From assembly GCF_003583925.1 (NCBI RefSeq), contig NZ_QYCN01000002.1, forward strand, positions 39,075 through 103,074: 64,000 nt of DNA, in the 5' to 3' direction. Each line of letters starts with the position of its first letter. Position 1 is the stretch's first letter. Of this stretch, positions 18,068 to 37,761 are shown in pieces. Under the pieces are notes generated by a model, which did no database searches, was not told the origin of the DNA, and worked only from the letters and a program-made list of their open reading frames with translations. This stretch comes from Hymenobacter rubripertinctus (lineage in GTDB: Bacteria > Bacteroidota > Bacteroidia > Cytophagales > Hymenobacteraceae). The position numbers and the translations under genes are program-made.

Positions 18068-18082
18068 TGAGCCTCCTGTCGG
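18068..18082. other. Attachment-site copy (left end of right element)
   Basis: TGAGCCTCCTGTCGG is identical to 37747-37761, which overlaps the 3' end of tRNA-Thr. It lies between the hairpin next to integrase 1 and the repressor gene. It is therefore the likely junction between the two tandem elements. Confidence 0.75.
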
Positions 18083-18154
18083 AACCTCACCAATCCGCCG
18101 AAGCACTCGGCAAAATATTGTTTATCAGGTCATTACACCTGAATTGAAAATCAA

Positions 18155-19012
18155 CTATTCAGACCGGGGGGCGTCAGAGGGGGCGTTTTGATCCAGCCGC
18201 TCCAACACGGCACTTCGCTCGAGGCCCAATGACTCGATAGCTTCCCACAACCGTTCCGCCGTGATGTGGGGCGCGCTCGGTAAAAACGTCGACAAGTAGC
18301 CCCGCACCCGCCACAGCTCCATGATGTCGGCTACGTCCAGCGGGTAGGGATGCCGGTGCGGATTATCCGAGTACAGAATCACTTCCTCCTCCAGGTCCGC
18401 AATCCGGTGCCGGATGCGCTTGAGCATCACGGCTTCCGCCGTCACCACCACATACATATCCCCGGGCACCAGCAACCGCCAGTTGTCGACCAGCGAGCAG
18501 ACCACCACATCGTTGTGGTTGAGCGTGGGCGTCATTGAATCACCCGCCACCTCAAAGGCCCGGAACTTGCCCTGCTCGAAGTGCGGCAGCCGGTAGCGCG
18601 GCAGGTCCTGCACGAACACGGCCTCGTTATGCTGCAGCGTGTAGCCCGCCTGGGCCGCCACCGGCACCAGCTCCACGTTGTCCACCCCGTCCTTGTCCAC
18701 GGTTACCACCAGCACCCCGCCATTATTCACCACCCCCTGACCGAGCGCCGGCTTAGGGCGGGCGGCGGGCGTAGCGCGTGCCGCCGGTTCCAGCATCTCC
18801 CCCCGGCCCATGACCAGCCACGCGGGCGACACCTCCGGGAAGGCATCCAGAATATCCACAAGTGTGGGAAAGCTCGGCTCCGTACCCGATAAGATTTTAT
18901 ACATCTTGCTATTGGTATTATAGCCCAGTTTCTGCGTCACACTATTGGCGTTTAAGCTGTAGTGCTGCAATAACTCGTTGATTCTGGTGGTTACGGTTGC
19001 CTTGCTGTCCAT
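18155..19012 (-). CDS. Phage-type repressor, HTH plus S24 LexA-like peptidase
   Basis: 285 residues. An N-terminal helix-turn-helix (ITRINELLQHYSLNANSVTQ, about 8-65) is followed by a linker and an S24 peptidase domain. FEVAGDSMTPTLNHNDVVV (Ser about 183) and the later VMLKRI (Lys) form the Ser-Lys pair expected for RecA-triggered self-cleavage. It should hold the element's early promoters off until DNA damage. The ATG at 19012 overlaps a 14-bp repeat also found 33 bases upstream, suggesting autoregulation. It is divergent from a small Cro-like gene. Confidence 0.85.
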   Translation of the reverse strand: MDSKATVTTRINELLQHYSLNANSVTQKLGYNTNSKMYKILSGTEPSFPTLVDILDAFPEVSPAWLVMGRGEMLEPAARATPAARPKPALGQGVVNNGGVLVVTVDKDGVDNVELVPVAAQAGYTLQHNEAVFVQDLPRYRLPHFEQGKFRAFEVAGDSMTPTLNHNDVVVCSLVDNWRLLVPGDMYVVVTAEAVMLKRIRHRIADLEEEVILYSDNPHRHPYPLDVADIMELWRVRGYLSTFLPSAPHITAERLWEAIESLGLERSAVLERLDQNAPSDAPRSE

Positions 19013-19124
19013 TTTTATGGGTATCGGAGTGCGGTATGCTCGGATTTTTATGCGTATGTTAGTAGGCGTATTTCCTGTCCAGGAACTACAAACATACACT
19101 TTTACCCACATAATACCTACAACT
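19011..19124. promoter_or_regulatory. Divergent repressor/early promoter region with operators
   Basis: ATTTTTATGGGTAT (19011-19024) and ATTTTTATGCGTAT (19044-19057) are direct repeats 33 bases apart, three helical turns. A minus-strand -7 box TATGTTTG (complement of 19089-19096) with TTG at 19120-19122 can drive the repressor. The repeats lie between this promoter and the repressor ATG. Confidence 0.6.
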
Positions 19125-19382
19125 ATGGCCGAAGAAGCGAAAGAAAGAACCCTACTGCAACGGGTGCTCGATACTTTACCCCGCAACCATACCGTGCTCA
19201 AAGATGCCCAGCAGGCCCTGGCTGCGAAGGGCACGGAGGTAACCCGCGGAGCCCTCTACGAGGTGATCAAGGGCCGCAGCAAAAAGCCCGAACTCATGGA
19301 AGCCATCCTTGATGCGGCCGAGGCCACTAAGGCCCGCACGGCCGCCCTGGAGGCGCGCGCCCAAAAATTAGCCGACCAATAG
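19125..19382 (+). CDS. Small Cro-like DNA-binding protein
   Basis: 85 residues, all helical. The segment NHTVLKDAQQALAAKGTEVT then RGALYEVIKGRSKKPELMEA looks like a helix-turn-helix with the charged recognition helix expected of Cro or antirepressor proteins. It is divergent from the S24 repressor and leads the rightward early operon. I use the ATG at 19125; the upstream extension crosses the operators. Role inferred from position and pattern. Confidence 0.6.
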   Translation: MAEEAKERTLLQRVLDTLPRNHTVLKDAQQALAAKGTEVTRGALYEVIKGRSKKPELMEAILDAAEATKARTAALEARAQKLADQ

Positions 19383-19395
19383 CCGCCGAATAACT

Positions 19396-19689
19396 ATGCA
19401 AGCCGCCTACATCGTGCCCGCCACCGAGTGGGACAACCTCACCGCCCGCCTCGCCCGCCTCGAATCCGCCGAGGCCGCCCGCCAGGCCCCCGCGCCCCCG
19501 CCCGACGACGTGCTGACCACCGCCCAGGCCGCCGCTTATATCGGCCTGTCGGTCGATGCCCTGCTGCGGGCCCGCAAGGATGGCCGCCTGCCGGGCGTGC
19601 GCCTCAACGACCGCGACTGGGGCTTCCGCCGCTCCAGCCTCGACAAATACCCCCGCCGCTACGCGCGGGTCACCAACCCGGCCAGTTAG
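19396..19689 (+). CDS. Excisionase / MerR-like HTH protein
   Basis: 97 residues. After a Pro-rich linker it reads LTTAQAAAYIGLSVDALLRA, then RKDGRLPGVRL and WGFRRSSLDKY, the HTH_17 excisionase pattern. In such proteins the helix and wing bend attachment DNA and set recombination direction. It starts 13 bases after the Cro-like gene, as expected for an early-operon Xis. Confidence 0.75.
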   Translation: MQAAYIVPATEWDNLTARLARLESAEAARQAPAPPPDDVLTTAQAAAYIGLSVDALLRARKDGRLPGVRLNDRDWGFRRSSLDKYPRRYARVTNPAS

Positions 19690-19739
19690 CCTCCCTGCCG
19701 CACCAACACTTTCCGCCACCTTCTCACGCCCACAGATTC

Positions 19740-36223: not shown

Positions 36224-36296
36224 CTGCTTACCCACCGCCCACGAAAACGGCCCACCACACCGGCGGGCCGCATCGTTGTCGTATAGTGGGCCCCTT

Positions 36297-37598
36297 TTAA
36301 GCCGCTGACGGCTCCACGGCGCAAATCTGGCTGTCCAGGCCTGCGGAGCTGTCCGTAACCGCCTCACCGTCCCAGATCCGCCGCATCGTCTGGTGCTGAA
36401 AGTCCTCAATAATCTTGGCGTAAATCAGCGTGGTCTGAATTTTCTTGTGGCCCAGCACCTTCTGCAGCACTTCCACCGGCATACCGCGCAGCAGGCTTTG
36501 GGTAGCGAAGGTGTGGCGGGCCGTGTGCATGGTCACCAGCTCACAGGTCGGCACCGCTGAGCGCGAAATCCCCCCATTGCCCGTACTCACCAGGTCGGCG
36601 GCTCTGGTCAGGCCCGCCAGCCGGGCCACCCGCTTTAGGTACTTATTCATCACCTGGTTGGGATGCACCGGCAACAGGCGCAGCTGCTCCGGGTCGGCAT
36701 ACTGATCGAGGATGGCCGAGGCCGCCGCGCTCAGGTAGATACTCACCCCGGCCCGCGTCTTGCTCTGCACCAGCCGCAGCAGCCGCCCCCCGTTCCACTC
36801 CTGCAGGTTGCCCGCGTGCAGCGCCGACACATCGGAGTAACGCAGCCCCGTGTAGCAGCAGAACAGAAACACGTCCCGCGTGGCCACCAGGTTGGCCGGC
36901 AGCATCGCCGAAGCCAGCGCCTCCAAATCAGCCGCCGACAAGTACAGCTTCGGCGTGTCGGCCGGCTTGGCCACCAGCTTGCGCAACTCAATCCCCACGG
37001 CCACGCCCCGCTCGTCTCGCAGAAACCGCAGGAATGATTTCAGGTCCTTCACCGCCGTATAAATGCTGTTGGGCGCCAGGGCCCGCACTTCCCGCAGGTA
37101 GCTGAGCAGCGCATCGTGCCGGGCCAGGTCGTAGGTTACGGGGTCCAGGAAGGCCCCGCTGTAGGCCTCGAAATCCGTAAACCAGTTGCGAGCCACCAGG
37201 TGCTGGCGCAGCGTTTCCCGCGAGTAGCCCCGCGCCCGCATGGCCTGCCGGTACTGCTCGTAGAGCCCGTACACCGACGCCGCTTCGGGCGGGGCCGGCG
37301 CCAGCTGCGGACGCAACACCAGCCGCAGGCCGGTCAGCGTGGGCACTTCACCCACCGCCCGCAGCTTGCGCCACCACGCCAGTACGTTGTCGGCCAACAG
37401 CTTCAACCCGTCATTGGCATCTTCGAACAGGGGGTAGGAGCTGCGAAACTTCTGCTTGTCGATATTCCAGTCGGCTGGCCGGCACATTTCCCCGGTTCCA
37501 CACTTGAGGCGGACACTATCGAAATACACTACTAAATGCACCGGACAGAGGCCAGCCTTGTTTTTCTTGTCGGTGCGAAGGACAAACTGAGTCACCAT
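36297..37598 (-). CDS. Tyrosine recombinase / integrase 2 (intact catalytic set)
   Basis: 433 residues. The Arm-binding N-terminus, SAM-like domain and catalytic domain carry Arg in CYTGLRYSD, HTARH, GHKKIQTTLIY with nucleophile Tyr393 (TAC, 36420-36422). It lies beside the tRNA-Thr gene whose 3' end is the attachment site, so it probably integrates and excises the right element. About half of its residues match integrase 1 by eye. Two GGGGGGCGTT copies lie just upstream (37603-37624). Confidence 0.9.
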   Translation of the reverse strand: MVTQFVLRTDKKNKAGLCPVHLVVYFDSVRLKCGTGEMCRPADWNIDKQKFRSSYPLFEDANDGLKLLADNVLAWWRKLRAVGEVPTLTGLRLVLRPQLAPAPPEAASVYGLYEQYRQAMRARGYSRETLRQHLVARNWFTDFEAYSGAFLDPVTYDLARHDALLSYLREVRALAPNSIYTAVKDLKSFLRFLRDERGVAVGIELRKLVAKPADTPKLYLSAADLEALASAMLPANLVATRDVFLFCCYTGLRYSDVSALHAGNLQEWNGGRLLRLVQSKTRAGVSIYLSAAASAILDQYADPEQLRLLPVHPNQVMNKYLKRVARLAGLTRAADLVSTGNGGISRSAVPTCELVTMHTARHTFATQSLLRGMPVEVLQKVLGHKKIQTTLIYAKIIEDFQHQTMRRIWDGEAVTDSSAGLDSQICAVEPSAA

Positions 37599-37602
37599 AA
37601 AC

Positions 37603-37624
37603 GGGGGGCGTTATGGGGGGCGTT
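37603..37624. repeat. 12-spaced GGGGGGCGTT pair upstream of integrase 2
   Basis: GGGGGGCGTT occurs at 37603-37612 and 37615-37624. Position and period match the 12-bp tandem repeat upstream of integrase 1, though the sequence differs. Confidence 0.5.
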
Positions 37625-37685
37625 GCTCCCCCCAGGAGTTGAAGGATTCGCACCAGGAGAGACCGAGACCCCTAGACGCAAAAAA

Positions 37686-37727
37686 CCCGGAAAACGCCTT
37701 TCTCGGTGCGAGAAAGCATTTTCCGGG
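37686..37727. repeat. Long hairpin between integrase 2 and tRNA
   Basis: CCCGGAAAA and CTTTCTCG pair with CGAGAAAG and TTTTCCGGG around a 3-base loop. The outer arms match the hairpin beside integrase 1. Possible terminator or recombination-site structure. Confidence 0.65.
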
Positions 37728-37746
37728 TGCTTCGGTAGGGATAATA

Positions 37747-37761
37747 TGAGCCTCCTGTCGG
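37747..37761. other. Attachment-site copy in tRNA-Thr (right end of right element)
   Basis: TGAGCCTCCTGTCGG covers the tRNA discriminator, acceptor arm and part of the T arm, and repeats exactly at 18068-18082. With the adjacent integrase it marks the element's right boundary. Confidence 0.75.

What the first reader, a model, noticed from the sequence alone, without database searches (positions are those of the whole stretch)
18068..37761. Satellite-like mobile element at tRNA-Thr with no virion genes
A 15-bp direct repeat (18068-18082, 37747-37761) of the tRNA-Thr 3' end bounds about 19.7 kb. Inside are repressor, Cro-like, excisionase-like, initiator with origin, VRR-NUC, restriction-modification, lysis, RecE-like nuclease and integrase genes, but I find no capsid, portal, tail or terminase. 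This is the gene set of a phage satellite or a reduced prophage, and it carries a restriction system as defence. I know of no described satellite family in this genus.
Basis: partly seen in the sequence, partly recalled or inferred. Interest (0 to 1): 0.85.

Follow-up and report, generated by a model that had tools for sequence, protein, structure and literature searches.

The report
Virion-less phage-derived element carrying restriction system
A 19.7-kb piece of DNA parked at a tRNA gene in a Hymenobacter bacterium is the smallest fully bounded member, among those examined, of a family of phage-like elements that keep phage control, replication and cell-lysis genes but carry restriction and other defence genes where related phages keep their particle genes; such elements may travel in other phages' particles, which is not yet shown.

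Summary
In detail: a 15-bp repeat of the tRNA-Thr(tgt) 3' end bounds 18068-37761, and I found no terminase, portal, capsid or tail gene inside. Two things change the picture. Second, the element belongs to a family: a marker gene occurs in 57 of 120 genus genomes (three copies in this one), and 21 Hymenobacter regions compared share a right-half core (endolysin and RecE in 21 of 21), a mostly shared left replication arm (initiator in 16 of 21) and variable cargo. No terminase place (two Pfam families) and no relaxase place lies in these regions; one 33-residue match to a phage structural protein in one member may be a relic. True Hymenobacter prophages carry the same left arm followed by terminase genes where the elements have a hotspot holding restriction systems. 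So this looks like a phage-derived, virion-less, defence-carrying family that works like a phage satellite but keeps an endolysin. Excision, helper use and packaging are untested, so membership in the satellites is not proven.

The parts
18068..18082 (.). left attachment repeat (copy of tRNA-Thr 3' end)
   Evidence: same geometry in other members
37747..37761 (.). right attachment repeat, at the tRNA-Thr 3' end
37748..37821 (-). tRNA-Thr (tgt), integration target
18155..19012 (-). S24/LexA-like repressor (start taken at an inner ATG, my choice)
   Evidence: Pfam Peptidase_S24 5.3e-9; phrog_4 2.6e-16
19396..19689 (+). HTH_17 / Cox-like regulator
19728..20468 (+). g3, phrog_9513 (unknown function)
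   Evidence: in 12 of 21 regions
20482..21489 (+). replication initiator-like protein containing the candidate origin
   Evidence: 11 Hymenobacter loci; first 81 aa match Polaribacter Freya phages, E 8e-7; function inferred
20769..20908 (.). five 22-nt iterons inside the initiator gene (candidate origin)
   Evidence: repeat clusters at a similar place in 11 of 16 members scanned, no chance control run
21371..22231 (+). g5, conserved replication-arm gene, also in true Hymenobacter prophages
22438..22926 (+). VRR-NUC nuclease
   Evidence: in 9 of 21 regions
23043..24908 (+). type II DNA methyltransferase (hotspot 1 cargo)
   Evidence: Pfam Eco57I; PADLOC MTase_II 2.5e-124
24875..25807 (-). type II restriction enzyme (hotspot 1 cargo)
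   Evidence: PADLOC REase_II 2.7e-67
25788..26045 (-). restriction control (C) protein
   Evidence: PADLOC Control_protein 1.5e-23
26329..26610 (-). holin-like membrane protein
   Evidence: a relative (E 1e-7) lies directly before an endolysin ORF in prophage G002; in 11 of 21 regions
26643..27089 (-). membrane/coiled-coil protein beside the endolysin (holin- or spanin-like)
   Evidence: weak PHROG hits only; in 11 of 21 regions
27082..27579 (-). M15 endolysin
   Evidence: phrog_15351 1.1e-23; similar to Listeria phage endolysins; in 21 of 21 regions
28588..29025 (-). SLOG/DprA-like protein
   Evidence: in 19 of 21 regions
29957..30265 (+). DUF3846 protein
   Evidence: in 20 of 21 regions
30584..31270 (+). 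gene 17, possibly an ssDNA-binding protein, marker used to find the family
   Evidence: weak OB-fold similarity only
31323..31985 (+). RecE-like exonuclease (DUF3799)
32203..33075 (+). AT-rich orphan gene, hotspot 2 cargo
   Evidence: no credible family
33187..33855 (-). g20, conserved accessory protein with exchangeable C-terminal part
   Evidence: 17 of 21 regions
34043..34678 (-). DUF6266 accessory protein
   Evidence: Pfam 1.3e-8; 8 of 21 regions; genus distribution
34739..35365 (-). SNase-type nuclease
35436..35624 (+). small HTH-like protein near int, candidate excisionase (inferred)
   Evidence: 15 of 21 regions
36297..37598 (-). tyrosine integrase
10202..18067 (.). truncated older element of the same family (RecE remnant 10202-10636, membrane genes 15988-16585, integrase 16624-17961)

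Best explanation
It is an intact-looking integrative element of a Hymenobacter family derived, at least in its left arm, from temperate tailed phages. It keeps a phage switch (S24 repressor), initiator with iterons, recombination and lysis genes, and integrates at a tRNA gene with its own integrase. The place where related prophages carry terminase and virion genes is a hotspot that here holds a type II restriction-modification system. Shown by sequence: boundaries, gene order, no match to the tested terminase, relaxase and virion families, left arm shared with true prophages, different restriction systems at one site in two species. Inferred: DNA damage or an infecting phage relieves the repressor, the element excises and replicates from the iterons, a helper phage's particle carries it, its own or the helper's lysis releases it, and the restriction system protects the host from other phages.
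For: Family: gene 17 in 57 of 120 genus genomes. Among 21 Hymenobacter regions picked for gene 17: endolysin and RecE 21, DUF3846 20, SLOG 19, initiator, g5 and integrase 16 each, repressor 14; also a region of a second genus, G345. Ends at tRNA genes. Virion absence: Terminase_6N at 31 places in 25 of 120 genomes, Terminase_3 at 29 places in 23, none inside the 21 regions. 444 phage and prophage proteins against 3930 six-frame ORFs of 22 regions: no hit from a terminase ORF; in the control, 7 of the 8 terminase ORFs my script caught found other phages. Origin: prophage G030 has repressor, initiator, g5 and VRR-NUC, then terminase; G002 repressor, initiator, g5, then terminase; G105 repressor, g5, then terminase. 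Cargo exchange: H. lapidiphilus has a type IIG enzyme where the window has a type II system, with flanking blocks 84 and 91% identical in DNA. Upkeep: dN/dS 0.07-0.60 in 13 of 14 genes compared, lysis genes 0.07-0.22.
Against: No excision, helper, packaged DNA or transfer was observed. This genome has no match to the two terminase families tested, so no resident helper is visible. An own endolysin and sizes of 19.7-55.6 kb are unlike known satellites. Two prophage ORFs of a virion structural family (phrog_7231) match one 33-residue stretch in member G036, between endolysin and SLOG, E 4e-5 for one query: a relic or, after 444 queries, chance. The replication arm is not universal (5 of 21 regions lack initiator and g5 in the stretch held). 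Some members look damaged: the H. lapidiphilus copy has no integrase match, and the g5 matches in both G071 elements, G025 and one G089 copy contain a stop. None of the six IMG/VR contigs with gene 17 shows this family's other core genes, apart from RecE and integrase-like hits, in the part held.
Confidence: 0.6

Rival explanations
1. Defective prophages: each element is an ordinary tailed prophage that lost its virion genes and is decaying or kept only for its defence genes.
For: The left arm is that of true prophages; the neighbour at 10202-18067 and the H. lapidiphilus copy are truncated; a 33-residue match to a virion protein in G036 may be a relic; some g5 copies have a stop; lysis genes are typical phage leftovers.
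Against: The 22 regions searched gave no terminase match yet share a core in the same order; repeats at six kinds of tRNA gene, and two tandem elements with three repeats in G071; dN/dS below 1 in 13 genes; the endolysin is kept in 21 of 21 regions.
Confidence: 0.22
2. Self-sufficient virus with an unrecognised particle, for example built from DUF6266 and g20.
For: All 14 DUF6266 places (in 12 of 120 genomes) lie within about 10 kb of an integrase of this family; g20 and DUF6266 proteins share a C-terminal part in different members; a kept endolysin suggests that something is released.
Against: No packaging ATPase family appeared in the scans of the window proteins; DUF6266 is in 8 of 21 regions only; no DUF6266 match in 50,697 phage records or in the IMG/VR scan; the DUF6266 model is too poor to judge (mean pLDDT 47).
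Confidence: 0.1
3. Mobilizable genomic island moved by conjugation.
For: Size range, tRNA sites and cargo fit islands in general (general knowledge; sizes and sites).
Against: Relaxase PF03432 matches in 75 of 120 genomes but at no place inside the 21 Hymenobacter regions; the core genes are phage-like. Other relaxase families and a bare oriT were not tested.
Confidence: 0.06

Closest known systems
P4-like satellites and P2-like phages with antiviral hotspots (PMC9122126, summary and passages seen)
   Same: Integrative phage-related element with a hotspot between conserved genes that exchanges restriction and other defence systems.
   Different: The hotspots there are about 1-5 kb; here the gap from g5 to gene 17, which contains hotspot 1 and the lysis block, is 8.4-41.1 kb in 36 pairs. 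P4 marker genes were not searched for.
PICI, cf-PICI, PLE and PICMI (PMC10803314, abstract and introduction read)
   Same: Site-specific integration, own integrase, own replication, no full virion set.
   Different: P4, PICI, cf-PICI and PLE average 9.5-18 kb and PICMIs sit next to fis; here 19.7-55.6 kb for ten bounded members, at tRNA genes, with an own endolysin.
Tycheposons/VEIMEs (only named in PMC10803314 and PMC11389934; details recalled)
   Same: Recalled: tRNA-site integration, tandem copies, variable cargo, spread in virions proposed.
   Different: Other bacteria; gene content not compared here.
Temperate tailed prophages of Hymenobacter (G030, G002, G105)
   Same: Repressor and g5 arm in the same order, with initiator in G030 and G002.
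   Different: Terminase follows that arm; no match to gene 17, RecE, M15, SLOG, DUF3846 or DUF6266 in the stretches held.

Membership tests
Phage satellite (general) | Own integrase and site-specific integration | tested here: met
   window and others; 16 of 21 regions have this integrase
Phage satellite (general) | Lacks a complete virion gene set | tested here: met
   93 cargo ORFs scanned, where only 25 of 89 matched PHROG families are listed; one 33-residue match in G036
Phage satellite (general) | Packaged by a helper phage | not testable with these tools
   needs infection or induction experiments
Phage satellite (general) | No own means to lyse the cell (statement in PMC11389934) | tested here: not met
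   M15 endolysin in 21 of 21 regions, the window's holin-like pair in 11 of 21. I do not treat this as an absolute defining feature.
PICMI | Integration next to fis, three core proteins | tested here: not met
   integration at tRNA genes and many core genes
PICI / cf-PICI / P4-like / PLE | Family marker genes (recalled: alpA, sid, psu, delta, terS and others) | not tested
   no dedicated models were searched; none appeared in the scans of window proteins
Complete temperate prophage | Terminase, portal, capsid, tail genes | tested here: not met
Integrative mobilizable/conjugative element | Relaxase | tested here: not met
   PF03432 has no place inside the 21 regions; other relaxase families not tested

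The most novel reading that the evidence does not exclude
A new family of phage satellites in Hymenobacteraceae, with full-phage-size members, in which a temperate phage lineage gave up its terminase-capsid-tail block for a defence hotspot but kept its own SOS-type switch, iteron origin and endolysin, so that it can time or force release from the cell while borrowing another phage's particle.
Probability: 0.4. Interest if true: 0.75.

Novelty: new variant of a known kind. Interest (0 to 1): 0.62.

Why it matters
Library searches for phage satellites with Bacteroidota or Bacteroidetes and for Hymenobacter with prophage or with satellite and phage listed no paper whose title or abstract start describes such elements; subscription journals are mostly not held. 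A family whose marker gene is in about half of the 120 genus genomes searched, with restriction, Ssp-type and other systems at fixed sites, would be a major vehicle of anti-phage defence there. It also offers a natural case of the step from phage to satellite: the same control and replication arm is followed by terminase genes in prophages and by defence genes here, so the origin of satellites can be studied in one genus.

Tried and rejected
My first reading, was that the window element is a one-off deletion of a full prophage whose virion genes fill the larger gap seen in relatives. Reading that gap in G063 by eye and scanning cargo showed mostly defence and repair genes, so I dropped it.

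Gene 17 as a RecT homologue: no family hit; the model (mean pLDDT 65) gave no Foldseek match at E 0.001 or better, only weak matches, many of them SSB/RPA OB folds, best E 0.026 with low TM-scores. I call it possibly ssDNA-binding.

DUF6266 as a capsid: folded as a single sequence, too poor to use, not searched further. IMG/VR searches with gene 17 alone and with DUF6266 found nothing; an alignment of gene 17 found six contigs, four with a Terminase_6N match, three over the cut-off. Rfam found only the tRNA.

Limits: the other 20 Hymenobacter element regions and G345 were chosen because they hold gene 17, so its presence there is by construction. A 20-kb G003 stretch was compared and left out of later counts. 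Script gene calls are heuristic. Seven ORFs crossing chunk borders and ORFs under 180 aa were left out of the 93 cargo ORFs. Regions without a confirmed left end (for example G083, G030, G005, G111, G010, own_C81 and those starting at base 1) give no element sizes. Terminase_3 and relaxase were not searched in G345; Terminase_6N had no match there. In one search the integrase matches all 120 genomes at E 0.001, which only says that tyrosine integrases are common. The output was cut, so I did not see the middle of prophage G002. PADLOC, PHROG and Pfam lists for the cargo show 25 of 289, 89 and 88 families.
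Full report
What is there. The window lies in contig C2 of a 5.1-Mb genome. Between them lie a left regulation and replication arm, a restriction-modification block of much lower GC, a lysis block, a recombination pair, accessory genes, and the integrase beside the tRNA. Five 22-nt iterons lie inside the initiator gene; clusters of repeats at about the same place in the gene, with different sequence, were seen in 11 of 16 members scanned, without a chance control. By eye, the repressor keeps an Ala-Gly bond and the Ser and Lys expected for LexA-type self-cleavage (motifs recalled).

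A second tyrosine integrase, 54% identical over its length, starts just left of the left repeat, with the same two small membrane genes (87% and 90% identical) and a RecE remnant further left at 10202-10636. So a truncated element of the same family lies at 10202-18067, and the intact one lies between it and the tRNA. A tandem pair with three copies of the repeat is also seen in G071. Around the right-hand chromosomal gene (37977-40280) I looked at 30 loci, the window's own included: beside a tRNA-Thr an integrase of this family was found in 9 (two of them partial matches) and a weaker integrase match in 1; in 15 there was a tRNA-Thr but no integrase match (in one, L165, the tRNA faces the other way); in 5 no tRNA was found. 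The loci reach only about 1.2-1.4 kb past the tRNA. In G087 (L169) the empty tRNA runs into the hairpin found at window 18000-18066. The site is thus occupied in some species and apparently free in others.

A family. Gene 17 (30584-31270) matches in 57 of 120 genus genomes and in 63 of 390 genomes sampled from the order, with lower identity outside the family. I compared 21 Hymenobacter element regions, the window included. Endolysin and RecE are in 21, DUF3846 in 20, SLOG in 19, g20 in 17, initiator, g5, SNase and this integrase in 16, the small HTH in 15, repressor in 14, the two holin-like genes in 11, VRR-NUC in 9 and DUF6266 in 8. Five regions (own_C103, own_C81, G030, G111, G010) lack initiator and g5 in the stretch held; in G030 a g5 lies further upstream. 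A region from another genus, G345, has 15 of the 26 window genes by profile. In six regions from other families gene 17 and RecE are shared, with scattered repressor-, integrase-, methylase-, control-protein- or SLOG-like hits. The six IMG/VR contigs with gene 17 look tailed-phage-like; four have a Terminase_6N match, three over the cut-off.

No virion genes, and why. Terminase_6N was found at 31 places and Terminase_3 at 29 places in the genus, none inside the 21 regions; this genome has neither. Relaxase PF03432, with matches in 75 of 120 genomes, has no place there either. In a search of 444 phage and prophage proteins against all 3930 six-frame ORFs of 22 regions, no terminase ORF gave a hit, while in the control 7 of the 8 terminase ORFs caught found other phages. 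The hits were repressors, VRR-NUC, integrases, gene 17, RecE, methylases and assorted cargo-type ORFs, and a g5 fragment in an earlier run. One exception bears on the claim: two prophage ORFs of a virion structural family (phrog_7231) match one 33-residue stretch in G036, in the gap between endolysin and SLOG, at E 4e-5. It may be a relic of a lost virion gene or, over 444 queries, chance. Ninety-three cargo ORFs of at least 180 aa from nine elements matched restriction systems of types I, II and IIG and SspC, UmuC-like polymerases (7 of 93) and, among the 25 of 89 PHROG families listed, no family named as head, tail or packaging; several listed ones have no name. Prophage G030 has the repressor, initiator, g5 and VRR-NUC in the element's order, then a large terminase and weakly supported tail and structural genes. 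G002 has repressor, initiator and g5, then a terminase match. G105 has repressor and g5, then a large terminase. The elements have cargo there. This is the best evidence on origin.

Cargo exchange and upkeep. The H. lapidiphilus copy matches the window over most of the backbone (seven blocks, 72-91% DNA identity) but has a 1256-aa type IIG enzyme instead of the type II system. It has no integrase match and looks stranded. Thirteen of 14 genes compared have a counterpart ORF, with dN/dS 0.07-0.60; gene 16 had none by my calling. g5, g6 and one holin-like protein are 94-96% identical between the two species, above the 74% of the one chromosomal protein compared, while the other element proteins are 62-90%. 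This suggests exchange of segments but rests on one chromosomal gene. The gap from g5 to gene 17 is 8.4 to 41.1 kb, median 23.2 kb, in 36 pairs out of 37 gene-17 places that I took because their contig also held a g5; the window has the shortest. Some g5 matches contain a stop, so not every member is intact.

How it probably works, and what kind it is. See Best explanation; excision, replication, helper use and transfer are inferred. By anatomy it works like a satellite. It departs from described ones in size (averages of 9.5-18 kb for four families, PMC10803314) and in keeping an endolysin (PMC11389934 states satellites cannot lyse the cell). I therefore file it as a new variant of virion-less phage-derived elements, not as a proven satellite. 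Literature: searches; for DUF6266 no paper was found. From the others I saw listings only, except the passages named above and three passages of PMC12324425, which concerns other elements.

Noticed in passing
window 10202-18067: Truncated second element of the same family, holding a LuxR-type gene (10956-11624), a repeat-rich exported protein (12046-14640) and an L,D-transpeptidase-like gene (14778-15644) between its RecE remnant and its integrase (names by eye).
   Followed up: partly
window 27580-28587 and 29026-29956: About 1 kb each of GC-rich DNA without a convincing gene, mostly within a block about 80% identical in DNA to H. lapidiphilus; could hold regulatory or packaging signals.
   Followed up: no
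L081 about 12470-12570 (G036): A 33-residue match to a phage virion structural protein (phrog_7231) in the gap between endolysin and SLOG genes of one member; possible relic of a lost capsid-type gene.
   Followed up: partly
L060-L062 (own genome C103) and L058-L059 (C81): Two more family members in the same genome: one at tRNA-Arg(acg) with SspC/SspD and PbeA/PbeC-like defence genes, one near tRNA-Asn with a different integrase type.
   Followed up: partly
window 33187-34678 and homologues: g20 and DUF6266 proteins of different members share a similar C-terminal part, as adhesins or tail-tip proteins often do.
   Followed up: no
L193-L195, L196-L199, L200-L202: Tailed prophages of Hymenobacter species that share the element's replication arm; candidate helpers or ancestors.
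   Followed up: partly
window 55000-58000: A stretch of lower GC (0.46-0.54) outside the element, not examined.
   Followed up: no
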